From assembly GCF_011065895.1 (NCBI RefSeq), contig NZ_JAALCR010000010.1, forward strand, positions 62,001 through 126,000: a stretch of 64,000 bases of DNA, in the 5' to 3' direction. Of the stretch, positions 29,481 to 45,288 are shown piece by piece (position 1 is the first letter of the stretch; each line of letters opens with the position of its first letter). The stretch is from Paludisphaera rhizosphaerae (GTDB lineage: Bacteria > Planctomycetota > Planctomycetia > Isosphaerales > Isosphaeraceae). A model generated the notes under the pieces. That model was not told where the DNA came from and did no database searches. It worked only from the letters and a program-made list of their open reading frames with translations. The translations under genes were made by a program, and so were the position numbers.

Positions 29481-32072
29481 GTGCAGCGTTCCTCGAACGA
29501 TAACGACCGCCTGCGGCGATGGGGCCTGGCGGCCTTTGCGATCGCAATCTCGCTATGGGGAGGCCGGGCCGGGGCGGCGGACATCGATGGGGCGAAACGC
29601 CTCTACCAGACCGGCCGCTACGACGAGTGCATCAAGCTCGCGACCGAGGAGGTCGGCAAGGGCTGGCGCGGCGACGAGTGGCACGCGTTGAAGATCCGCG
29701 CTGAAATGGCTCGCGGCCGCTACGCCGAGGCCGTCGCATCCCTGGCCGACGCCGTCCGCCGCTACCCCGCCAGCCTGATGATCCACCTCCTGGGCCGGGA
29801 GGTCCGCCGTTTCGATCCAGCCGCCCGCGAGGGTGCCGGAGAGGGGCCGGCGGAGGCGTCCGCATCGTTGATCGAGCGGATCGTCATCAACGCGCCCGAG
29901 CGTTACAGCGACCCCCAGGCGCGGGTCGACCTGGGTCGCTATCTGCTGCGCAACGGGGCCGACCCCAAGCGGGTTCTCGACCGCTTCTACGACCCGGTGA
30001 TGAAGCAGAACCCCGACCTGATGGACGGTTTCTACGCCGCCGCCGAGCTGGCCCTCGACAAACAGGACGCAGCCCTGGCCGCCGACACTCTCCGTGCGGC
30101 CCCCAAGACGGCCGCCGAGGATCCAGCCTACCACTTCCTCCTCGCCCGCGCCCTGTCCGAGGGCGACCGCGCCGGCTCCGCCGCGGCCCTCGACCAGGCG
30201 CTGAAGATCAACCCGAACTACGTCGACGCCCTGCTGCTGCTCGTCGACGGCCTCGTCGACCGCGAGCGTTACGCCGAGGCCGCTCAGATGCTCGACAAGG
30301 TCGCCGAGGTCAACCCCCGCGAGCCACGCGCCTGGGCCTATCGCGCGGTCCTCGCCCACCTCAAGAGCGACGCCGAGGGCGAAGAGTCCGCCCGCCGCAA
30401 GGCCATGGAGCCCTGGCCGGGGAACCCCGAGGTCGACGAGCTGATCGGTCGCAAGCTGGCGCAGAAGTATCGGTTCGCCGAGTCCGAGGCGTATCTCCGC
30501 CGCGCCGTGACGCTCGACGGCGAGTCTCTGTCGGCCCGCGTTCAACTTGCCGAGACCCTGCTGCGGCTGGGCAAGGAGGAGGAGGGCTGGAAGCTCGTCG
30601 ACGGAGTTTTCACCGCGGACGGCTACAATGTGGTCGCCTACAACCTCACGAACCTTCGCGACCGCATCGCCGCCTTCCGTACGATCGAGTCCGACGGGAT
30701 CGTCGTCCGCATGGATCCGCGCGAGGCCGAACTCTACGGCGACCGCGTGGTCGAGCTGCTCAAGGAAGCCCGCGCGACGCTCTCCGCGCGCTACGGATCG
30801 GCGCCTCCCAACCCGTTGATCGTCGAGATTTTCCCGCGTCGGCAGGAGTTCGGCGTGCGGACGTTCGGGCTCCCCGGGGCCGACGGTTTCCTGGGCGTCT
30901 GCTTCGGGCCGGTGATCACGGCCATCAGCGCGGCGGCCCAGGCGGAGCACCCCTCCAACTGGCGGGCCGTCCTCTGGCACGAGCTTTGCCATGCGGTGAC
31001 GCTGTCGAAGACGCGCAACAAGATGCCGCGATGGCTCAGCGAGGGGATCTCGGTGTACGAGGAGGGCCTCAAAGACCCGGCGTGGGCGACTCGCCCCAGC
31101 CCCGAACAGCGCGAGGCGCTGCGGGCCGAAGGGCTTACGCCGCTCAGCCGGCTCAGCTCGGCCTTCCTGGAAGCCAAGAGCGGCCAGGATGTGCAGTTGG
31201 CCTATCTGGAATCGGCCCTGGCCGTGGAATTCCTGGTCGCCAAGGCAGGTTTCCCGGCCCTTGTCGGGCTGCTCGAAGACCTGGGGGCGGGGAAGAATCT
31301 GGACTCGGCGCTGCCGGCGCGAACCGGAATGACGCTCGATCGATTAGACGCCGAATTCGCCGCGTTCGCGAAATCAAAGGCCGAGGCCGGCGCTGAATGG
31401 GAGGACGTCGAGCTTCCCGAAACCGCCGACGCCGCCGCGCTGGCGGGCTGGGTCGAGAAGCATCCGAAGAACCTCCCTGGCTGGCGACGGTACGCGGCGA
31501 AGCTCGTCGCCGAGCAGAAATGGCCTGAAGCCAAGGCGGCGCTGCTCAAATATCAGGCGCTGGCGCCCGACTACGTCGGCGAGGGGAACGCCTACATGCT
31601 GCTGGCCGAGGTCGACCGGAAGACGAACAACGCCGCCGGCGAACGCGCCGCGCTGGAGGAACTGGCGTCCCGCGAGGGGGACGCGACTCCCGTCTACGAT
31701 CGGCTCATCGACCTGGCCAAAGGGGCGGACGACTGGCAGGCCGTGGCGGTCAACGCCCGCCGGCTCCTGGCCGTCAATCCGCTGGTCCCCGCTCCGCACC
31801 GGGCCCTCGCCGAAGCCGCCGAACGCCTGGGGCTCCGCGACGAGGCCATCTCGTCCGCCCGGGCTCTGGCGACGCTCGACGACGGCGATCCGGCCGGCGT
31901 CCACTTCCGCCTCGCCCGCCTCCTCCGCGACGCCGGGCGCAAACCGGAAGCCCGTCGCGAGGCACTCAAAGCTCTGGAGGAAGCCCCGCGCTTCCTCGAC
32001 GCCCATAAGCTGCTCCTTGAGCTCGTCGACGAAACCCAGACGCCGCAATTACCCCCGGGGCTACCGCGATGA
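29481..32072 (+). CDS. exported TPR protein with HExxH metallopeptidase-like domain
   Basis: An 863-residue exported protein. After a signal peptide (WGLAAFAIAISLWGGRAGAA) come TPR-type repeats (about 35-350; GAKRLYQTGRYDECIKLA, ALKINPNYVDALLLLVDGLVDRERYAEAA). A gluzincin-like domain follows: VLWHELCHAVTLSKTRNKMPRWLSEGISVYEE, with HELCH as zinc motif and the later Glu of SEGISVYEE as third-ligand candidate. More TPR-like helices make up the C-terminus. It begins the 15-kb plus-strand cluster, and its stop overlaps the next gene by 4 nt. It probably acts in the periplasm, with TPRs binding partners. GTG start at 29481 after GGAGGAGGG. Peptidase activity is inferred from motifs. Confidence 0.88.
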   Translation: MQRSSNDNDRLRRWGLAAFAIAISLWGGRAGAADIDGAKRLYQTGRYDECIKLATEEVGKGWRGDEWHALKIRAEMARGRYAEAVASLADAVRRYPASLMIHLLGREVRRFDPAAREGAGEGPAEASASLIERIVINAPERYSDPQARVDLGRYLLRNGADPKRVLDRFYDPVMKQNPDLMDGFYAAAELALDKQDAALAADTLRAAPKTAAEDPAYHFLLARALSEGDRAGSAAALDQALKINPNYVDALLLLVDGLVDRERYAEAAQMLDKVAEVNPREPRAWAYRAVLAHLKSDAEGEESARRKAMEPWPGNPEVDELIGRKLAQKYRFAESEAYLRRAVTLDGESLSARVQLAETLLRLGKEEEGWKLVDGVFTADGYNVVAYNLTNLRDRIAAFRTIESDGIVVRMDPREAELYGDRVVELLKEARATLSARYGSAPPNPLIVEIFPRRQEFGVRTFGLPGADGFLGVCFGPVITAISAAAQAEHPSNWRAVLWHELCHAVTLSKTRNKMPRWLSEGISVYEEGLKDPAWATRPSPEQREALRAEGLTPLSRLSSAFLEAKSGQDVQLAYLESALAVEFLVAKAGFPALVGLLEDLGAGKNLDSALPARTGMTLDRLDAEFAAFAKSKAEAGAEWEDVELPETADAAALAGWVEKHPKNLPGWRRYAAKLVAEQKWPEAKAALLKYQALAPDYVGEGNAYMLLAEVDRKTNNAAGERAALEELASREGDATPVYDRLIDLAKGADDWQAVAVNARRLLAVNPLVPAPHRALAEAAERLGLRDEAISSARALATLDDGDPAGVHFRLARLLRDAGRKPEARREALKALEEAPRFLDAHKLLLELVDETQTPQLPPGLPR

Positions 32073-32974
32073 GTCGATTCACAAGACGCCCATTCGCCGT
32101 CGCGGTCGTCGCCCTCTGCCTGGCCGTGGTCGTCGGCGGAGCCGTTCTGGCCCAGTTCGGCCCAGGCTTCGGACCCGGGTTCGGCCGCGGCGGAGGCCGA
32201 GGCCGACGGATGTCGCCTCTGAACGGCCTCCCCACCGATCGCGCCGGCGTCCCCGACTGGGAGGTCAGCGAGAAGTTTTCGGAGGACGTCTTTACCTTCG
32301 TCCGCGTCCAGTACGACTCCTCGTACAACTCCTACGGCGGTTGGGGCCGCGGCGGCGGAGGCGGCTGGACGACCGACTGGCCCGACAGTGACCTGAACTT
32401 CTCGTACCGGCTCCAGCAACTCACCTCGTTGAAGGTGAACCCGGAGCCGATCTGCCTCCGCCTGACCGACCCTCGACTGTTCGACTACCCGTTCCTCTAC
32501 ATGATCGAGCCCGGCCGGCTGGCCTTCTCGGAAGAGGAGGTCGTCGCCCTTCGCCGCTATCTTCTGAACGGCGGGTTCATGATGGTGGACGACTTCTGGG
32601 GCGATGCGCAATACGAGAACTTCTACCACGAGATCAAGCGCGTCTTCCCCGACCGCGAGCCCTTTGACATCCCTCTGGAGCACCCGATCTTCCAGTGCGT
32701 CTACAAGCTCCGCGAGCGCCCGCAGGTCCCCAGTATCCACACCTGGATGGGGACCGGGCAGATGTATGAGGACCACGGTCCTGGCTCGGTCGAGGTCCAC
32801 TATCGAGGGATCAAGGACGACAAGGATCGGCTCGTCGTCTTCATCGGCCACAACACGGACCTGGGCGACGGCTGGGAGCGCGAGGGCGAGGATCCGGAAT
32901 ACTTCCACGAGTTCGCCGAGAAGAAGTCGTACCCGCTGGGCATCAACATCGTCACCTACGCCATGACCCACTAA
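32069..32974 (+). CDS. DUF4159 domain exported protein
   Basis: A 301-residue protein with an N-terminal signal or anchor (AVAVVALCLAVVVGGAVLAQ), a Gly/Arg-rich low-complexity stretch, and a DUF4159 domain: FTFVRVQYDS, then WPDSDLNFSYRLQQLTSLKVNPEP, DYPFLYMIEPGRLAFSEEEVVALRRYLLNGGFMMVDDFWG. The last run is a glutamine-amidotransferase-like fold. It begins by ATGA overlap with the upstream TPR peptidase gene. DUF4159 proteins are regularly found beside MoxR, DUF58 and BatA genes in planctomycetes and relatives, which fits this place. Function unknown; perhaps a periplasmic scaffold of the cluster. A second Gly-rich insertion, YGGWGRGGGGGW, is unusual. Confidence 0.9.
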   Translation: MSRFTRRPFAVAVVALCLAVVVGGAVLAQFGPGFGPGFGRGGGRGRRMSPLNGLPTDRAGVPDWEVSEKFSEDVFTFVRVQYDSSYNSYGGWGRGGGGGWTTDWPDSDLNFSYRLQQLTSLKVNPEPICLRLTDPRLFDYPFLYMIEPGRLAFSEEEVVALRRYLLNGGFMMVDDFWGDAQYENFYHEIKRVFPDREPFDIPLEHPIFQCVYKLRERPQVPSIHTWMGTGQMYEDHGPGSVEVHYRGIKDDKDRLVVFIGHNTDLGDGWEREGEDPEYFHEFAEKKSYPLGINIVTYAMTH

Positions 32975-32990: not shown

Positions 32991-33043
32991 CGGGGACTGT
33001 CCCGATTTTGCGAAGTCCGCGGAGCAAAATGGGACTGTCCCCC
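32991..33043. repeat. REP-like palindrome
   Basis: Inverted arms CGGGGACTGTCCCGATTTTGC (32991-33011, split here at 20 bases) and GCAAAATGGGACTGTCCCC flank a 12-base GC-rich spacer. Each arm contains GGGACTGTCCC, itself a palindrome. This form matches REP-type elements mobilised by TnpA-REP (RAYT) transposases in many bacteria; no RAYT gene is in this window. Confidence 0.7.
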
Positions 33044-33076
33044 TCCCCGAGCGTGAACGATACGAAAGGGACTCTC

Positions 33077-34087
33077 GTGACCGAAGCGGCCGACTCCTAC
33101 GAGGACGAGAAACGGATCGTCGAGAAGATCCACGAGAGCCGGGGCCGGATCGAACGCGAACTGGCCAAGGTGATCGTCGGGCAGGCCGAGGCGACGCGGC
33201 AGCTCCTGATCGCGCTCTTCGCCGGCGGCCACTGCCTCATCACCGGTGCCCCCGGTCTGGCCAAGACGCTGCTGGTGCGGACGATCGCCCAGGTCTTCCA
33301 CCTGGACTTCCAGCGCATCCAGTTCACGCCCGACCTCATGCCGGCCGACATCACCGGGACCGAGATCCTGGAAGACGTGGGCGACGGCCGGCGGCGGATG
33401 CAGTTCGTCAAGGGGCCGATCTTCGCCAACGTGATCCTCGCCGACGAGATCAACCGAACCCCGCCCAAGACCCAGGCCGCCCTGCTGGAAGCCATGCAGG
33501 AGCACCAGGTCACCGCGGCCGGCGTCCGCTATCCGCTGGAAGAGCCGTTCTTCGTCCTGGCGACCCAGAACCCGATCGAGATGGAAGGGACCTACCCGCT
33601 GCCGGAGGCCCAGCTCGACCGCTTCCTGTTCAACGTCGTCGTCGACTACCTGCCGGAAGACGACGAGGTCTCCGTCGTCCAGCGGACGACCTCGACGAAG
33701 CCCGAGAAGGTTGAGCCTCTGTTCAGCGGCGTGGACGTGACCGAGTTCCACGAGGTCGTCCGCAAGGTGCCCGTCGCCGAGCCGCTGGTGCGATACGCCG
33801 TGAAGCTCGCCGCCGCCAGCCGGCCGGGGCCCTCGGCGCCGAAGTTCGTCAACGACTGGGTGAGCTGGGGGGCCGGCCTCCGCGCTCCGCAGTCGCTGGT
33901 TCTGGGCGCCAAGGCGCGGGCCTTGCTCTCAGGCCGGTTCCACGTCGCGACCGACGACATCCGCGCCCTCGCTCACCCCACGCTCCGCCACCGCATCCTG
34001 CTCGGCTACCGGGCCGAGGCCGACGGGATTACGGTCGACTCGGTGATCGACCGCCTCCTCGAACACGTCAAGGAGCCGATCCGTTGA
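33077..34087 (+). CDS. MoxR-family AAA ATPase
   Basis: A 336-residue AAA+ ATPase of the MoxR/APE2220 branch, thought to act as a chaperone in assembly of VWA-domain complexes. Motifs: Walker A TGAPGLAKT (about 56-64), Walker B VILADEINRTPP, sensor 1 LATQNPIEMEGTYPLPEAQLDRF, and Arg-containing C-terminal lid helices. The GTG at 33077 has AAAGGGA 6 nt upstream; the in-frame region before it overlaps the REP-like repeat and is not coding. It overlaps the DUF58 gene by 4 nt, the constant partner of MoxR. It should be cytoplasmic and act on the adjacent VWA proteins. Confidence 0.95.
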   Translation: MTEAADSYEDEKRIVEKIHESRGRIERELAKVIVGQAEATRQLLIALFAGGHCLITGAPGLAKTLLVRTIAQVFHLDFQRIQFTPDLMPADITGTEILEDVGDGRRRMQFVKGPIFANVILADEINRTPPKTQAALLEAMQEHQVTAAGVRYPLEEPFFVLATQNPIEMEGTYPLPEAQLDRFLFNVVVDYLPEDDEVSVVQRTTSTKPEKVEPLFSGVDVTEFHEVVRKVPVAEPLVRYAVKLAAASRPGPSAPKFVNDWVSWGAGLRAPQSLVLGAKARALLSGRFHVATDDIRALAHPTLRHRILLGYRAEADGITVDSVIDRLLEHVKEPIR

Positions 34088-35070
34088 GCATGCCGGACGA
34101 CCGACCCCCGCGCGAGCCTGCACCCGCCCCCGCGGCGGGCCGGCGGTCGTTCGTCGACCCTCAGGCGCTCTTCCGGATCAAGAGCCTGCAACTCCGGGCT
34201 CGGGCGGCCGTGGAGGGCTTCCTCAAGGGGATCCACCGCAGCCCCTACCACGGCTACTCGGTCGAATTCAGCGAGTACCGCCCCTACACCGAAGGGGACG
34301 ACGTCCGCGGCCTGGACTGGCGGCTCTACGCCCGGACCGACCGCTACTACGTCAAGAAGTTCGAGGATGAGACCAACCTCCGCTGCCACCTCGTCGTCGA
34401 CTCCAGCCGGTCGATGGGCTATGCCTCCGGCGAGGTGACGAAGGGCGAGTACGCCCGAACGGCCGCCGCCACGATCGCCTACTTCCTGAACCTCCAGCGC
34501 GACGCCGTCGGCCTGGCCCTGTTCGAGGACCGGATCGTCGACTACCTGCCCCCTCGCAACCGTCCCGGTCAACTGCGTCGGATCATGGGGCTGCTCGACC
34601 GCGAGCCGAAGGGAGCGGCGACGAACCTCGTCGGCCCGCTCGACGAATTGGCGGCGAACGTCAAGCGGCGTGGGCTGGTCGTCTTGATCTCCGACCTGCT
34701 CGCGCCGGCCTCGGCCTTGAAGGAGCCGCTCTCGCGGCTGCATGCCCGAGGGCACGAGGTGATCCTCCTCCGCGTCCTCGACCCGGCGGAGGTCGACTTC
34801 ACCTTCGAGACCCCCGCGCGGTTCCGCGACGTGGAGTCCGGCCGCGACCTGTTCATCGACCCTTCGTCCGCCCGCGCCGGTTACCTGGCGAAGTTCCGCG
34901 CCCACGCCGACGAACTGACCCAGATCTGCGACGGCATGGGCTTCGTCCTGCGGACGATGACGACCGACTCCCCCCTGGAGCTGGCCCTGTTCGACGTCCT
35001 CCGCTCGCGGATGCTCCGGCTTTCCGGCCCATCGCGGCGGACCGCCCCGGGGCGGGGAGGGCGGGCATGA
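34084..35070 (+). CDS. DUF58 domain protein (VWA-like)
   Basis: A 328-residue DUF58 protein, the usual partner of MoxR ATPases. The core DUF58 signature is GIHRSPYHGYSVEFSEYRPYTEGDDVRGLDWRLYARTDRYYVKKFEDETNL, followed by LVVDSSRSMGYASG, a MIDAS-like DxSxS site typical of VWA domains. The likely start is a TTG at 34084 overlapping the MoxR stop (TTGA), with AGGAG 8 nt upstream; an ATG follows two codons later. Role: metal-dependent binding partner in the MoxR complex, cytoplasmic. The stop overlaps the BatA-like gene. DUF58 members occur in aerotolerance operons and in peptidoglycan or envelope stress contexts, but no target is known. Confidence 0.95.
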   Translation: MSMPDDRPPREPAPAPAAGRRSFVDPQALFRIKSLQLRARAAVEGFLKGIHRSPYHGYSVEFSEYRPYTEGDDVRGLDWRLYARTDRYYVKKFEDETNLRCHLVVDSSRSMGYASGEVTKGEYARTAAATIAYFLNLQRDAVGLALFEDRIVDYLPPRNRPGQLRRIMGLLDREPKGAATNLVGPLDELAANVKRRGLVVLISDLLAPASALKEPLSRLHARGHEVILLRVLDPAEVDFTFETPARFRDVESGRDLFIDPSSARAGYLAKFRAHADELTQICDGMGFVLRTMTTDSPLELALFDVLRSRMLRLSGPSRRTAPGRGGRA

Positions 35071-37156
35071 GCTTCCTCACCCCGCTTTTCCTGCTGGGCG
35101 GCCTGGCGATCGTCGCGCCGATCATCTTCCACCTGATCCGCCGGACGACCAAGGACGAGACCCCGTTCGGCTCCCTGATGTTCCTGGAGCCCTCGCCGCC
35201 GCGAGTCTCACGCCGGAGCCGCCTGGAGAATCTCCCTCTACTGCTGCTGCGAGCCGGCGTCCTGATCATCCTGGCGGCGGCCTTCGCCCGGCCCTTCCTG
35301 AGGGAGCCCGCCGCGCTGGACGTCGCCGCCGCGCAAGGGGAACGCGTCGCCCTTTTGATCGACGCCAGCGCGAGCATGAGACGGTCCGACCTGTGGCCGA
35401 AAGCCGTCGCCGCGGCGATCGCCGAGGTCGACGCCCGCGGCCCCGGCGATGAGCTGGCCGTCATCGCCTTCGACGCCTCGACTCGGCCGATCCTCAGCTT
35501 CGCCGAGTGGTCGGCGCTCGACCCGGACGCCCGCCGCGCGCTGGCTCGCACACGGATCGGCGAGCTGCGGCCCTCGTGGTCGGCGACGAAGCTGGGCCAG
35601 GCCCTCGTGGACGCCGCCGGCGTGATCGAGGACGTCGGCGACGCCGAACCGGCGGCCGCCCGGACGACACGGCGGATCGTGCTGATCTCCGACGTCCAGC
35701 AGGGGTGCCACCTCGAGGCGCTGGGAGACTTCGAGTGGCCGTCCGACCTGGAGCTGGACGTCCGGCCCTTCGTCGCCCGCGGCTCCAACGCTTCCATGGA
35801 ACGCCTGGCCGACACGGCCGACGACGCCCAGCCTGAATCGATCCGCGTCCGCGTCTCCAACGATCCCGATTCCGATCGTGAGGCGTTCCGGCTCGCCTGG
35901 GACGTCGACCGCCCCGGCGAGCCCGTCTCCATGACCGTCCCCCCCGGCGAGAGCCGCGTCGTCCGCGTCCCGCTGCCGCCGGCCGGCGCCGAACACACCG
36001 CGCTGAAGCTGGCGGGGGACTCGCACTCGTTCGACGACACCTTCTACGTGGCGACCGAGCCCGAACGTCCGTCGTCCGTCCTGTTCGCCGGTCCCGACGA
36101 GGCCGACGACCCCGAGGGCCTGCTCTACTACCTGTCGAGGGCCTATGAAGGGCTCCCCGGCCGGACCGTGAACGTCGAGCGTCGCCCTCCCGGAACGCCG
36201 CTCGCCATCGCCGCGGACCGTCCTCCCGCGCTCGTCGTCCTGACCTCGGAACTCCCTGCAGCCGAAGCCCCCGCGCTGGCCGAGTACGTCAACCGCGGCG
36301 GGACGGTGCTGGCCGTCCCCGGCGCCGGTAGGTCGGAGACCCTCGCGGCTGTGGCTGGCGTCGCCCCGTTCGACGTGGCCGACGCCGACGTGAAAGGCGA
36401 CTCGATGCTCGGCGAGATCGACTTCGGACATCCCCTGTTCTCCGCCGTCTCGGCGCCCCAGTTCAACGACTTCACGAAGATCCGATTCCGCAAGTACCGT
36501 CGCCTGCCGGCCGACGCGCTGGGGGAGGCCCGCGTGGTCGCCCGGTTTGAGTCGGGCGATCCGGCGGTGATCGAGAAGCGGATCGGCCGAGGCCGGCTGG
36601 TTGTGATGACGACGGGCTGGCGACCGACCGACGGCTGGCTGGCTCGATCGTCGAAGTTCATCCCCCTGATGGCGGCCATGCTCGACGCCCCCGGCGATTC
36701 CAGCGAGCCCACCGGGCCGCTGCGGGTGGGCGACCCGATCCCGCTCCCCGAAGGGGCGACCGCCGTCCGCAAGCCGGACGGCCCCTCGATCCCCATCTCG
36801 CCGGGATTGGCCGCGTTCCTCGGGGCGGATGCGCCGGGCGTGTATGAGATCGAGGCCCCGGGCGGCCCTCGCCGCGTGGCCGTGAACCTGGACCCCTCCG
36901 AGAGCCGCACAGCACCCCTGGGCGTCGGGGCGCTGGAGCAGGCGGGGGTGCGGTTGGTGCAGTCGAAGAAAGAGGCCGCGGCCGAGCCGGACCCTGAGAC
37001 GAAGCGGCAGTTGCAGGCGGCGGAGTTGGAGGGGCGGCAGAAGCTCTGGCGTCCTTTGATCCTGGCGGCGCTTGGCGTTTTGGTCGTGGAAACCTGGCTC
37101 GCGGGTCGGCTCAGCCGAACCCGTCGCGTCGTAACCGAAGCGGGGGCGGCCGCGTC

Positions 37157-37160
<4 letters not shown>
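35067..37160 (+). CDS. BatA-like VWA membrane protein
   Basis: A 697-residue membrane protein. The N-terminus (MSFLTPLFLLGGLAIVAPIIFHLIRR) is the BatA domain, with FGSLMFLEPSPPRVSRRSRLENLPLLLLRAGVLIILAAAFARPF completing the signature two-helix unit. A VWA domain follows: VALLIDASASMRRSD (MIDAS DxSxS) and RIVLISDVQQG. After it comes a periplasmic beta-rich part and a glutamine-amidotransferase-like fold (VLFAGPDEADDPEGLLYYLSRAYEG, GGTVLAVPGAG). A C-terminal membrane helix (RPLILAALGVLVVETWLAGRLS) closes the protein. Both ends are membrane anchors. ATG start overlaps the DUF58 stop by 4 nt. A cluster member that likely receives MoxR/DUF58 action. Confidence 0.92.
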
Positions 37161-41130
<3,970 letters not shown>

Positions 41131-41134
<4 letters not shown>

Positions 41135-43482
41135 CAGGATCGTCGATCGTGTTGGGGGGGCCCGCGTGGTGGCCCTGGGCTGCGGGATTCGCGGCGTTCG
41201 GATTGCTGCTGACTCTCTGGAGCTACTCGGACTCCCGCTTCAGCGTCGGCGTGCGGCTCGCCTGCGCGCTGCTCAAGGCGACGGCCTTCGCGGCGCTCGC
41301 CCTGATCGTGCTTGAGCCGCTGCTGGCCGGGCGTCGTCCTCGCCCCGGCGCGAACGCGTTCGCCGTCATGGCCGACGCCAGCCAGAGCCTCCAGGTACGC
41401 GACGAGGGGGAGGAGAAGACCCGAGGCGACTGGATCCGAGGCAAGCTCAACCAGGACCAGCCCTGGCGAACCCGGCTCGGCCAGGACTTCGACGTCCGCG
41501 GTTACGCCTTCGACACCCACCTCCGCGCCGTCGACGACTTCAACGGGCTGACGTTCAGCGGGCCGGGCTCGTCGATCGGTTCGGCGCTCGGGTCGCTGGC
41601 CAAGCGGTTCCGGGGGCGTCCGCTGGCCGGGGCCCTGTTGTTCACGGACGGTCTCCGTACCGACCTCGGCGACGTTGACCCCAAGGATCTGCCGCCGATC
41701 TATCCGGTGCTCCTGCCGATGAACCCCGGCGCACGGGACGTCGGCGTGCGGTCGGCGACGGTCAGCCAGACGAACTTCGAGTCGGCCCCGGTCGTCATTC
41801 GGGTCGAGGTCGCGACCCCCGGATTCTCCGGCCGGCCGATCGTCGCCGTCGTGCTCGACGAGAACGGCGCCGAGGTCCAGCGGCGTCGCGAGACCGCTGG
41901 CTCCGACGACAAGCCCCTGAACTTCCGCTTCCAGTTCCGTCCCCCCAAACGCGGGGTCTCGTTCTACCGCGTCCGCGCCTTCCCGGCCGATGAGGAGCCG
42001 AAAGCCGAAGGGCCGTCGCCGCCGTCCACGGAGCAGGCGCTGGCCAACAACGAGCGGTTTGTAGTGGTCGACCAGGGGGGCGGAGAATACCGCATCCTGT
42101 ACGTCGGCGGCCGGCCTAACTGGGAGTACAAGTTCCTCCATCGGGGTCTCCACGAAGACGAGCAGATCCGCCTGGTAGGCATGCTACGGGTGGCTCGAAA
42201 GCAGCCCAAGTTCGACTTTCAGGCCAAGGGGGAACGGCCGCAGAACAAGTTCTTCGAGGGCTTCGACGACCCCGCCGCCGACACCCAGGACGCCGCCGAC
42301 AAGCCGGTGCTGGTCCGCCTCGACGTCGCCGACGAGTCCGAGCTGCGCGACGGCTTCCCCAAGACGGCCGAGGACCTGTACCGCTACCACGCCATCGTCC
42401 TGGACGACATCGAGGCCGGCTTCTTCGCCCCCGACCAGATGACGCTCTTGCGGAACTTCGTCTCGATCCGGGGCGGCGGCCTGCTGATGCTTGGCGGCCC
42501 CGAGACGTTCGCCGACGGCCATTACGACCGGACGCCCGTGGGCGAGATGCTCCCCGTCTATCTCGACCGCCGCACCGAGCCGAAAGACACAACGGGCTTC
42601 CATCTGGTCCTCACTCGTGAAGGCTGGCTCCAGCCCTGGGTCCGCACCCGCGCCACCGAGCCGGAGGAGCAGAAGCGGCTGAACGAGATGCCCCCCTTCC
42701 GGACGCTCAGCCAGGTCGGCCGGCTCAAGCCCGGGGCGGTGGTGCTGGCCGAGGCGACCGATCCCGAGGGGACCGTCGCCCCCGCGCTGGCGGTGCAGAG
42801 CTTCGGCAAGGGGAGGGTCGGCGCGTTGCTGATCGGCGACCTCTGGCGCTGGGGGATGCATCGTAAAGACCCGGCGGAGAGCGACCTCGAGAAGGCCTGG
42901 CGCCAGACCGCTCGCTGGCTGGTGGCCGACGTCCCGCGCCGCGTGGAGGTCGCCGTCCGGCCGTCGCCGGAATCCCCCGCGCCGGCCGTCGAGTTGACCG
43001 CCCGCGTCCGCGACAAGGAGTACCGGCCGCTCGACGATTCCAAGGTCGCGCTCAAAGTCAAGCTCCCCGACGGCGAGACGGCCGCCGTCGTCGCCGAACC
43101 GGTCTCCGGCGAGCCGGGCGCCTACGTGGCGACCTACGTTCCCAAGACGCCGGGGGGCTATCGCGTCTCGGCGACGGCCGTCGCGGCCGACGGCTCGGCG
43201 GTGGGTGAGGCCGAAGCCGGCTGGGCCTCGCAGCCGGCGGCCGACGAGTTCGCCCGGCTGGCCCCAGACCGCGCCTTCCTCTCCGACCTGGCCAGGAAGA
43301 CGGGCGGCGCGGTGGTCGAGGGCGACGACCTGGAATCGTTCGTCGCCGGCCTTCCCGCCCGAGGCGCCCCGATCTCCGAGCCCTGGACGGCCACGCTCTG
43401 GGACCATCCGGCCGCGTTCCTCTTCGCCGTCGCCTGCCTCGCCGCCGAGTGGGGCCTGCGCCGGCTCAACGGCCTCGCCTGA
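41131..43482 (+). CDS. VWA/glutamine-amidotransferase-like membrane protein
   Basis: A 783-residue membrane protein. Two N-terminal helices (WAAGFAAFGLLLTLWS, LLKATAFAALALIVLEPLL) precede a VWA-like domain: NAFAVMADASQSLQV in place of the MIDAS DxSxS, and GALLFTDGLRTD. A beta sandwich follows (VGVRSATVSQTNFESAPVVIRVEV). Then an amidotransferase-like Rossmann fold appears: GEYRILYVGGRPNWEYKFLHRGL, IVLDDIEAGFFAPDQMTLLRNFVSIRGGGLLMLGGPETFADG. The catalytic Cys of class I amidotransferases is not apparent, so the domain is probably non-catalytic. A C-terminal helix (AAFLFAVACLAAEWGLRRL) anchors it. ATG overlaps the previous stop. Such proteins regularly follow MoxR-DUF58-BatA genes in planctomycetes. 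Confidence 0.88.
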
Positions 43483-43497
43483 CCGAAGGACGACCCC

Positions 43498-44481
43498 ATG
43501 CCCCTCCTGGCGACCGCCCTGCTGCTCGCGACCCTGGCTCAGGCCCAGGCCGAGGCTCCGCCGCCCGCCGACCGGCCGTCGGTCCTCGTCGTCGTCGGGA
43601 CGCCCGGCACGCCCGAGTACGCCGCCGAGTTCCGCCAGGCCGTCGACGCCTGGCGAGCCGCCGCGGCCAAGGCCCCGGCCGACTTCCGGGCGATCGGGAT
43701 CGACGGCTCCGCCGACGCCGCCGTCCCCGACCGTGAAGCCCTGCGCAAGGCCCTGGCCGAGACGCCGACGGGCGGTCGCGAGGCCCTCTGGTTGGTCATG
43801 GTCGGTCATGGCACCTTCGACGGTAAGGAGGCCAAGTTCAACCTCCGCGGCCCCGACGTCACGGCCGCCGAGACGGCCGAGTGGCTCAAGCCGTTCACCC
43901 GCCCGCTGGCGATCCTCGACGGCTCCTCGGCGAGCGGCCCGTTCCTCAACGCCCTCTCCGCGCCCGGGCGAGTCGTGATCGTCGCCACCCGCAGCGGCGA
44001 CGAGCAGAACTACGCCAGGCTCGGCCCGAACCTCGCCGAGGCGATCGCCGACCCCCGCGCCGACCTCGACAAGGACGAACAGGTCTCGCTGCTGGAAGCC
44101 TTCCTCACGGCCGCCACCCGCACGGCCGAGTTCTACAAGTCCAAGTCCCGCCTGGCCACCGAGCACCCCCTGATCGACGACGACGGCGACAAGCTGGGCA
44201 CCCCCGCCGACTGGTTCAAGGGCCTCAGGGCGATCAAGAAGCCCACCGGCGGCAAGTCGCTCGACGGCGCACGAGCCCGACAGATCCACCTGGTCCCCAA
44301 CGACCGCGACCGCAAGATGACGCCCGAAGTCCGCGACCGCCGTGATAACCTGGAGCGCGAGGCCGCCGACCTGCGGGCCAAGAAAGAGAGTCTGTCCGAG
44401 GACGACTACTACGCCCGCCTCGAGAAGATCATGGTTGAGCTGGCCCGCATCTACGGCGGCCGTCCTGCGGTGGGGTTCTGA
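43498..44481 (+). CDS. exported caspase-fold-like protein, probably without catalytic Cys
   Basis: A 327-residue exported protein (signal MPLLATALLLATLAQAQAEAPP). The core has the look of clan CD peptidases (caspase or C13-like): VLVVVGTPGTPEYAAEF, LWLVMVGHGTFDG with the His-Gly of the catalytic His (His104), then LAILDGSSASGPFLNAL at the site of the catalytic Cys. In active members this reads D-A-C-x-S-G; here D141-G142-S143 has Ser where Cys would be. Later RVVIVATRSGDEQNYARLGPNLAEAI and AFLTAATRTAEFY match the family's 3D layout. The C-terminus is helical, with a DDYYARLEKIMVELARIY end. It follows the cluster's last membrane gene by 15 nt and probably ends the operon. Fold is inferred from motifs. 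Confidence 0.75.
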   Translation: MPLLATALLLATLAQAQAEAPPPADRPSVLVVVGTPGTPEYAAEFRQAVDAWRAAAAKAPADFRAIGIDGSADAAVPDREALRKALAETPTGGREALWLVMVGHGTFDGKEAKFNLRGPDVTAAETAEWLKPFTRPLAILDGSSASGPFLNALSAPGRVVIVATRSGDEQNYARLGPNLAEAIADPRADLDKDEQVSLLEAFLTAATRTAEFYKSKSRLATEHPLIDDDGDKLGTPADWFKGLRAIKKPTGGKSLDGARARQIHLVPNDRDRKMTPEVRDRRDNLEREAADLRAKKESLSEDDYYARLEKIMVELARIYGGRPAVGF

Positions 44482-44487
44482 GAATCC

Positions 44488-45288
44488 ATGAATTGGAAGA
44501 CGATATTCGCCATCGCCCTCGCTTCGGCCTGTCTCGGCGCGGATGAGCCGCCGGGGGGGGGCCGCGACACCATCTCGCAGATCTCGGTCATCAACGCCCT
44601 GATGGTCGGCCGGTACGACGGCGAGGCTTCCATCGCCGAGCTGCTGAAGCTGGGCGACTTCGGCCTGGGGACGCTCGACCACCTCGACGGCGAGTTGATC
44701 GTCCTGGACGGCCGGGCGTATCAGGTCCGGGGCGACGGCGCGATCGTCGACGTTCCGCCCGATCGCTCCACCCCGTTCGCGGTCGTCACCCCGTTCGACG
44801 TCGACGGCGAGTTCCCCTGTCCGCGCGTCGCCAGCCTCACCGAGCTTGAGGAACGCCTGAACAAGACGCTCGCCGGCCGGAACGCGTTCGTCGCGATCAA
44901 GATCCGGGCCAAGGTCGACTCGATCACCCTGCGAAGCGTCAAGCGGCAGGAGCCTCCTTATCGACCGCTCGACGAGGTGGCGAAGAGCCAGTCGATGTGG
45001 ACCCATCGCAACGTCAGCGGGACGATGCTGGGCGTCCGGAGTCCGTCGTGGGTCGGCAACCTGACGGTCCCCGGCTACCACTGGCACTTCCTCTCGGACG
45101 ACCACAAGGTCGGCGGCCACATCCTGGACGTCCGCCCCGTCGAGGGCCGCGTCCAGTACGACCTCACCCGCGACTGGGACGTCCGCCTCCCCGCCTCGGC
45201 CGACTTCGACGCCGCCGAGCTGAACCGCGACCTCTCCCGAGAGCTGAAGCGGGTGGAAAGCTCCCGCGGCGACGCCCCCCCGAAGTAA
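44488..45288 (+). CDS. exported alpha-acetolactate decarboxylase-like protein
   Basis: A 266-residue protein of the acetolactate decarboxylase (BudA/AlsD) family, which turns 2-acetolactate into acetoin. The domain hallmarks are present: GDFGLGTLDHLDGELIVLDGRAYQ and VPGYHWHFLSDDHKVGGHILD. His198, His200 and His211 match the three zinc ligands. The acidic Glu/Arg residues of the core are also visible (ELIVLDG). Unlike most members it starts with MNWKTIFAIALASACLGADE, which reads as a signal peptide or lipoprotein signal (ASAC), so the enzyme would act outside the cytoplasm. No acetolactate synthase gene is near. It starts 6 nt after the caspase-like gene. Family assignment is firm, location inferred. 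Confidence 0.9.
   Translation: MNWKTIFAIALASACLGADEPPGGGRDTISQISVINALMVGRYDGEASIAELLKLGDFGLGTLDHLDGELIVLDGRAYQVRGDGAIVDVPPDRSTPFAVVTPFDVDGEFPCPRVASLTELEERLNKTLAGRNAFVAIKIRAKVDSITLRSVKRQEPPYRPLDEVAKSQSMWTHRNVSGTMLGVRSPSWVGNLTVPGYHWHFLSDDHKVGGHILDVRPVEGRVQYDLTRDWDVRLPASADFDAAELNRDLSRELKRVESSRGDAPPK

What the first reader, a model, noticed from the sequence alone, without database searches (positions are those of the whole stretch)
43498..44481. Caspase-fold protein with Ser in place of the catalytic Cys
Seen: an exported protein with the VMVGHG histidine element and ILDGSSASG at the position where clan CD peptidases have D-A-C-x-S-G. The Cys is replaced by Ser143, while the scaffold is kept. 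Inference: it is a pseudo-protease that binds peptides, or a Ser-based enzyme of this fold. Its place directly after the VWA/amidotransferase-like gene, whose own catalytic Cys is also missing, suggests that non-catalytic protease folds have been recruited as structural parts of the complex.
Basis: partly seen in the sequence, partly recalled or inferred. Interest (0 to 1): 0.6.

Follow-up and report, generated by a model that had tools for sequence, protein, structure and literature searches.

The report
Exported pseudo-legumain paired with VWA protein
This planctomycete gene makes an apparently exported protein with the fold of legumain-type proteases whose catalytic cysteine is missing across its whole known family, and which seems to survive as a fixed, non-cutting partner of one membrane protein.

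Summary
Window 43498-44481 encodes a 327-aa protein with a signal-like N-terminus. Its AlphaFold2 model (pLDDT 90.1) superposes best on legumain (VIA Z 18.9, 196 residues, 2.6 Å). The nucleophile position is Ser144, not Ser143: Cys-bearing relatives align there without gaps. None of four family libraries recognises the protein. At that position 221 distinct core relatives have S199, A18, P2, G1, T1 and no Cys; His104 is 220 of 220, and an acidic, calcium-loop-like motif is nearly invariant. So this is an old, fixed Cys-less family, not a decayed copy. Sixteen changes at 144 on the best tree, and His kept in all 22 rows without Ser144, speak against a Ser-His enzyme. Outside the core clade 4 of 23 relatives carry Cys; two of the three whose surroundings I read follow a VWA gene too. 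The gene follows the VWA/GATase-like gene of a MoxR-DUF58-BatA-DUF4175 operon in 75 of 80 loci (four misses are contig ends). Close relatives of both genes are present together (29) or absent together (30) in 59 genomes. Best reading: a clan CD pseudo-peptidase acting as obligate, non-catalytic partner of that membrane protein. A Ser-based enzyme is not excluded.

The parts
43498..44481 (+). Legumain-fold pseudo-peptidase with signal-like start, 327 aa; His104 kept, Ser144 at the nucleophile position
43804..43812 (+). Codons of Gly103-His104-Gly105, the kept His element after strand 97-102
   Evidence: His 220 of 220 core relatives; strand limits
43927..43929 (+). Codon of Ser144, aligned with the Cys of Cys-bearing relatives
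44062..44097 (+). Codons 189-200: acidic loop D189-x-D191-x-D193-x-x-x-S197-x-x-E200, EF-hand-like, presumably calcium binding (inference)
   Evidence: D189, D193, S197, E200 in 221 of 221, D191 in 216 of 221
41131..43482 (+). Partner gene: VWA / GATase1-like protein with predicted membrane helices at both ends, 783 aa
   Evidence: Pfam GATase1_like PF07090 32.5 bits, cut-off 27; the VWA-like part was read by eye; adjacent in 75 of 80 loci; close relatives co-present in 29 and co-absent in 30 of 59 genomes
37157..41134 (+). DUF4175-like gene of the same operon
   Evidence: PF13779 31.4 bits, cut-off 27.3; conserved upstream
35067..37160 (+). BatA-type gene (BatA N-terminus, VWA)
   Evidence: PF07584 61.4 bits, PF13519 VWA_2 32.1 bits
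34084..35070 (+). DUF58 gene
   Evidence: PF01882 E 6e-52
33008..34087 (+). MoxR-type AAA+ ATPase gene, named by eye; no family scan was run on it

Best explanation
The gene encodes a clan CD pseudo-peptidase of the legumain type with a signal-like start. Shown: the predicted fold, the absence of the catalytic Cys in every core relative read, strong conservation of the rest of the protein, and close genomic pairing with one VWA/GATase-like membrane protein. Inferred: the protein sits in the periplasm, uses the old substrate cleft or the conserved rim around His104, N115-D120 and S146 to hold a peptide segment or the partner's ectodomain, is stabilised by calcium at the invariant acidic loops, and serves as a non-cutting adaptor or regulator in the MoxR/Bat-type membrane complex.
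For: Fold: legumain first by VIA (Z 18.9, 2.6 Å, 196 residues); caspase-11, legumain and MALT1 first by Foldseek. Homology chain: the core profile finds L133 (E 1.0e-31), and L133, which has Cys at 144, passes Pfam Peptidase_C13 (28.1 bits, cut-off 22.8) and, narrowly, C14 (21.5, cut-off 21.4). Loss of Cys: 0 of 221 core rows have Cys at 144, though Cys stands at 142 in 150 and at 145 in 23 of 221. Not a nucleophile: 22 of 221 lack Ser144 (18 Ala); parsimony needs 16 changes on the best tree, 10 independent pairs rest on well-supported branches; all 22 keep His104. Column 144 ranked 71st of 296 in conservation, while H104, D120, D189, D193, S197, E200, E222, D228 and D231 did not vary (120 rows). 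Not decayed: dN 0.16-0.33 against dS 0.51-0.66 with five relatives. Pairing: 75 of 80 loci; four misses have at most 184 bases upstream, one (L047) has 8 kb without the partner. 39 of 75 have a 4-base start/stop overlap by mechanical start choice. 29 genomes have close relatives of both genes, 30 of neither, 0 of only one (tally).
Against: No interaction, localisation or activity was measured. Invariant His104 and S146 could also be read as a working active site. Where Ser144 is lost, position 143 is Ser/Thr in 17 of 22 against 61 of 199 (Fisher p 2.9e-5), as if a hydroxyl were needed nearby; on independent pairs this is not significant (median p 0.375). The 29/30 split is not corrected for shared ancestry. 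The trees are quick ones (LG+G4, SH-aLRT only).
Confidence: 0.68

Rival explanations
1. A Ser-based enzyme on the clan CD scaffold: Ser144 with His104 forms a dyad that acts on an ester, a peptide or as a transferase.
For: Ser at 144 in 199 of 221, His104 in 220 of 220, S146 in 220 of 221; 17 of 22 rows without Ser144 have Ser/Thr at 143.
Against: Ala, Pro, Gly or Thr at 144 in 22 of 221 with 16 changes on the best tree, and His104 stays in all 22. In outlying rows with A, G, P, E or R at that position the His stays in 7 of 9, so the His does not track a nucleophile. The hydroxyl compensation is not significant on independent pairs.
Confidence: 0.13
2. A decoy or inhibitor that binds the substrates or the active form of a true caspase-type peptidase in the same cell.
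For: The genome holds two Peptidase_C14 matches; L206 keeps GHG and DAC motifs and begins with a signal-like stretch (read by eye). Inactive caspase domains are common in the effector position of other bacterial MoxR-vWA systems (passages of PMC7159879).
Against: Presence follows one VWA/GATase subfamily in 59 of 59 genomes; the distribution of C14 genes was not compared. No Peptidase_C13 match was found in this genome.
Confidence: 0.12
3. A recently decayed copy of an active peptidase.
For: Cys-bearing relatives occupy a like operon place (L133 in L141, L135 in L142).
Against: None of 221 core rows has the Cys; the core rows are one side of a branch, SH-aLRT 99; open frame, dN below dS, and invariant sites elsewhere.
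Confidence: 0.02

Closest known systems
Legumain, MEROPS family C13 (clan CD)
   Same: Fold (VIA Z 18.9 over 196 residues), His-Gly after the third main strand, distant homology through L133
   Different: No Cys nucleophile; no Pfam C13 match; two residues before the nucleophile position 0 of 221 have D, E or Q and one has N, where legumain has a Glu that lines the S1 pocket (recalled); followed by a helical hairpin of about residues 276-319
Pseudo-orthocaspases (p20 domain with Tyr-Ser in place of His-Cys; PMC6426788, start of abstract, passages)
   Same: Clan CD fold in bacteria with Ser in place of Cys
   Different: Here the His is kept in 220 of 220, the sequence does not match C14, and the protein is a single domain tied to a MoxR/Bat-type operon
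Inactive caspase domains of MoxR-vWA ternary conflict systems (PMC7159879, passages)
   Same: Catalytically dead clan CD domains near MoxR and vWA genes, systems also present in planctomycetes
   Different: Those are described as parts of VMAP or of the vWA effector position; here it is a stand-alone, apparently exported protein in a DUF58-BatA-DUF4175 operon; 'BatA' has 0 occurrences in that text
Bat (aerotolerance) operons, e.g. Leptospira biflexa (PMC3557215, abstract and section list)
   Same: MoxR, DUF58, BatA and VWA membrane proteins (make-up of Bat operons recalled in part)
   Different: No clan CD protein is named in the abstract or section list; the abstract reports no growth or oxidative-stress phenotype of the deletion

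Membership tests
Clan CD cysteine peptidases (features as in PMC4357240, passages) | Caspase/haemoglobinase alpha-beta fold | tested here: met
   AlphaFold2 model pLDDT 90.1, pTM 0.88; legumain, metacaspase and caspase matches at VIA Z about 16-19
Clan CD cysteine peptidases (features as in PMC4357240, passages) | Catalytic His with adjacent Gly at the end of the third main strand | tested here: met
   Strand 97-102, then G103-H104-G105; His 220 of 220
Clan CD cysteine peptidases (features as in PMC4357240, passages) | Catalytic Cys at the end of the fourth main strand | tested here: not met
   Ser144; 0 of 221 core relatives have Cys there
Clan CD cysteine peptidases (features as in PMC4357240, passages) | Peptidase activity, generally with strict P1 specificity | not testable with these tools
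   Needs biochemistry
Peptidase family C13 (legumain) | Match to Pfam PF01650 | tested here: not met
   0 Pfam families for P0001 at E up to 1; none in its genome at E up to 0.001; a distant Cys-bearing relative, L133, does match
Peptidase family C13 (legumain) | S1 pocket residues of legumain | tested here: inconclusive
   No D/E/Q at column 142 in 221 and columns 42-43 vary freely, but the mapping on legumain is by eye from recalled residues, without coordinates; the Cys-bearing outlying rows L133, L135, L138 and L139 lack D/E/Q there too
Peptidase family C14 / pseudo-orthocaspases | Match to Peptidase_C14 | tested here: not met
   the own-genome search with PF00656 listed two other genes only
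Peptidase family C14 / pseudo-orthocaspases | Tyr in place of the catalytic His (YS type) | tested here: not met
   His104 kept, 220 of 220
MoxR-vWA ternary conflict systems | MoxR plus vWA plus a third component such as VMAP | not tested
   VWA and MoxR-type genes are present in the operon; VMAP was not searched for

The most novel reading that the evidence does not exclude
A serine-based enzyme of the caspase/legumain fold: Ser144 and the invariant His104 form a working dyad in an exported protein of Planctomycetota and Verrucomicrobiota, with lineages in which the hydroxyl has moved to position 143 or been lost.
Probability: 0.12. Interest if true: 0.8.

Novelty: new variant of a known kind. 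Interest (0 to 1): 0.5.

Why it matters
Dead caspase-fold proteins are known in bacteria, but this one is a large family without a Pfam or NCBIfam match, fixed in the Cys-less state with its His intact, and locked to one VWA/GATase membrane protein of an operon whose function is unsettled. Because some outlying relatives in a similar operon place still have Cys (L133, L135), Cys and Ser versions offer a natural comparison: does the same slot work with and without proteolysis? It also gives a concrete handle on what the MoxR/Bat-type operons of planctomycetes do.

Tried and rejected
Sequence searches of solved structures gave nothing (best E 0.44 and 1.5, unrelated). PHROGs and PADLOC gave only weak rows (best E 0.26 and 0.027), so phage or defence labels were dropped. 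The NCBIfam row RoxC (12.5 bits, cut-off 900) was dropped.

Decay was rejected (see rivals). The idea that Ser/Thr143 takes over where Ser144 is lost was tested on trees of 143 rows (120 core) and 221 rows; it leans that way but is not significant once relatedness is allowed for. The wider idea that some Cys, Ser or Thr is kept at 142-144 holds in 221 of 221, but a Cys, Ser or Thr at 142 or 143 is not significantly commoner where Ser144 is lost (22 of 22 against 188 of 199, Fisher p 0.61). Cys142, present in 150 of 221, as a moved nucleophile was considered and rejected for this protein, which has Gly there.

The downstream acetolactate decarboxylase gene was considered as part of the unit and rejected: 0 of 67 loci with more than 1.5 kb downstream have it. 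Fusion of partner and pseudo-peptidase was looked for and not found (0 of 75). The partner model (pLDDT 84.4) gave, in the 50 rows shown, broad Foldseek matches to multi-domain glycosidases, complement proteins and an adhesin at TM under 0.3, which I do not interpret; no VIA job was run on it. Gingipain, clostripain and separase do not appear among the 50 rows; this excludes nothing.

Literature: seven searches listed no paper that I recognised as describing this family; I read passages or abstracts of five papers, and most subscription papers are not in that library. PMC3501461 (passages) reports that planctomycete metacaspases keep the Cys-His dyad in 64% and that Cys is most often replaced by Ser (43% of substitutions), so the kind of change is known. 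PMC7889975 was seen in listings only.

Rows dropped: 3 of 80 loci (L063, L088, L100) were left out of alignment A2 because my coordinates ran past a stop; rows identical to another apart from their ends, and pieces under 120 aa, were removed before the counts; 23 outlying rows (core score 200 or less) are counted apart. From the class search 30 loci came with the call and 100 more regions were fetched; its remaining matches were not read. Of the 490 relatives only the best 80 were returned. The first look of the tree warned of long outlying branches.

Full report
What is there. The ORF at 43498-44481 encodes 327 aa with a hydrophobic, signal-like start, VMVGHG around His104 and ILDGSSASG at 139-147. 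It starts 15 bases after the stop of the VWA/GATase1-like gene 41131-43482 (coordinates). Upstream lie a DUF4175-like gene, a BatA-type gene, a DUF58 gene and a gene that I read by eye as a MoxR-type ATPase. Downstream is an acetolactate decarboxylase gene that the other loci do not share (0 of 67 with more than 1.5 kb downstream).

Fold. No Pfam family at E up to 1, and only weak rows of NCBIfam, PHROGs and PADLOC, match the protein; no related PDB sequence was found. The AlphaFold2 model built with 77 relatives has mean pLDDT 90.1 and pTM 0.88. Foldseek lists caspase-11 (E 3.2e-5), legumain and MALT1 first. VIA, over Foldseek's best 1000 chains, lists legumain first (4nol_A, Z 18.9, 196 residues, 2.6 Å), then plant legumains, metacaspase (17.9), a CHAT filament protein (16.7), GPI transamidase (16.0) and caspases (about 16). 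This is a clan CD fold, nearest to legumain.

Which residue. In ungapped stretches of the profile alignments the Cys of L139, L133, L135 and L138 falls on column 144 and the following Ser on 146. L133 itself passes Pfam's cut-offs for Peptidase_C13 and narrowly for C14; L135 and L139 match C13 below the cut-off, L138 not at all. So the nucleophile position is Ser144.

How old the loss is. Relatives were collected from 59 related genomes (30 with a match), from genome contigs (490 confirmed of 524 stretches, best 80 returned), from 294 genomes of the phylum (37 with a match), from 288 genomes drawn from the phylum of a Verrucomicrobiota-titled genome (20 with a match) and from 397 genomes of the class (194 with a match). 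Of the 80 returned loci, 40 have titles in Planctomycetota, 38 in Verrucomicrobiota and 2 are unplaced. After removal of rows identical apart from their ends, 221 core rows remain: at 144 S199, A18, P2, G1, T1, Cys 0; His104 220 of 220 (one row is cut short); Ser146 220 of 221; D189, D193, S197, E200, E222, D228 and D231 221 of 221. The core rows form one side of a branch with SH-aLRT 99 in a quick tree of 143 rows that warns of long outlying branches. Outside the core, Cys occurs at that column in 4 of 23 rows, next to S5, T5, P3, A2, G2, E1 and R1; three of the four Cys rows form a clade (99) beside two Ser rows. I infer, since C13 peptidases at large have Cys, that the core lost it once at its base; the root was not computed.

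Is it a Ser enzyme? Against: 22 of 221 rows lack Ser144, 16 changes are needed on the best tree (10 independent pairs on well-supported branches), and all 22 keep His104; among outlying rows without C, S or T there 7 of 9 keep the His as well. The His is therefore kept for reasons other than a dyad. In favour: 90% Ser, and 17 of 22 exceptions have Ser/Thr one residue earlier against 61 of 199 (Fisher p 2.9e-5); on independent pairs this goes 3.7 for, 0.8 against, 5.5 undecided on average, median p 0.375. Cys is absent at 144 although frequent at 142 (150 of 221) and 145 (23 of 221) and rare overall (363 in 68,578 residues); a Ser-to-Cys change can need one base only, so I read this as avoidance of re-arming the site (inference, not tested statistically).

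Partnership. Of 80 loci, 75 have the VWA/GATase gene directly upstream on the same strand; four of the others have at most 184 bases upstream and one, L047, has 8 kb without it. Among loci with more than 3.5 kb upstream, 63 of 64 have both the DUF4175-like and the VWA/GATase gene. In 39 of 75 the start overlaps the stop by 4 bases, with mechanical start choice, and none of 75 is fused. In the 59 related genomes, the 29 with a core match (E better than 1e-60) are exactly the 29 with a close relative of the partner (same limit); the 30 others have neither, though all 59 have at least remoter VWA/GATase relatives (tally and Fisher p 1.7e-17, not corrected for ancestry; one of the 30, G022, has a remote pseudo-peptidase relative at E 4.2e-22). 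Of nine outlying relatives whose surroundings were fetched, four follow a VWA/GATase gene (L141, L142, L143, L146), three lie before MoxR-DUF58 genes on the same strand (L147, L148, L149), and L144 and L145 show neither. L141 and L142 hold the Cys form (L133, L135), L145 holds the Cys form L139 without a VWA neighbour, and the surroundings of the fourth Cys row, L138, were not read. So a like slot exists in Cys and Ser versions.

The partner. In 70 relatives plus the window protein no column of the GATase-like part has Cys in 30% or more; the only such columns are 45, 59 and 769, within predicted helices near the two ends. Its model has pLDDT 84.4 and no fold match that I can interpret.

Mechanism. 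Shown: predicted fold, absence of Cys in all core rows read, conservation, genomic pairing. Inferred: export to the periplasm, calcium at the acidic loops, and a role as a non-cutting adaptor that holds a peptide or the partner's ectodomain. Probability about 0.68 for the pseudo-peptidase partner, 0.13 for a Ser enzyme, 0.12 for a decoy or inhibitor of an active peptidase such as the dyad-bearing C14 protein of the same genome (L206).

Known or new. Cys-to-Ser pseudo-caspases are known in bacteria (PMC6426788, start of abstract and passages; PMC3501461, passages), and dead caspase domains occur in MoxR-vWA conflict systems (PMC7159879, passages). The listings showed me no account of this family. 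Hence: a new variant of a known kind.

Noticed in passing
window 44488-45288 (+): Acetolactate decarboxylase (PF03306 E 6.2e-75) with a signal-like N-terminus (by eye), directly after the operon; not shared by the other loci (0 of 67).
   Followed up: partly
window about 40100-40760 (+): The DUF4175-like protein carries a long Gln/Gly-rich low-complexity stretch; the 1515-aa minus-strand ORF 36143-40690 over it is probably its mirror and no gene.
   Followed up: no
window 29481-32072 (+): TPR-type protein with an HELCH (HExxH-like) motif upstream of the MoxR-type gene (read by eye): perhaps a metallopeptidase of the same unit. The gene between them (32069-32974) was taken for DUF4159 by eye only.
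   Followed up: no
L147, L148, L149: Another outlying caspase-fold gene lies just before MoxR-DUF58 genes in related genomes; the row of L149 reads SACSG, with Cys one column off.
   Followed up: partly
core relatives, column 142: Cys in 150 of 221 rows two residues before the nucleophile position, 150 of the 363 Cys in all core rows; the window has Gly. Role unknown.
   Followed up: partly
L206 (G000:C14:165575-166303): The same genome holds a Peptidase_C14 protein (67.8 bits) with His and Cys motifs kept, read by eye.
   Followed up: partly
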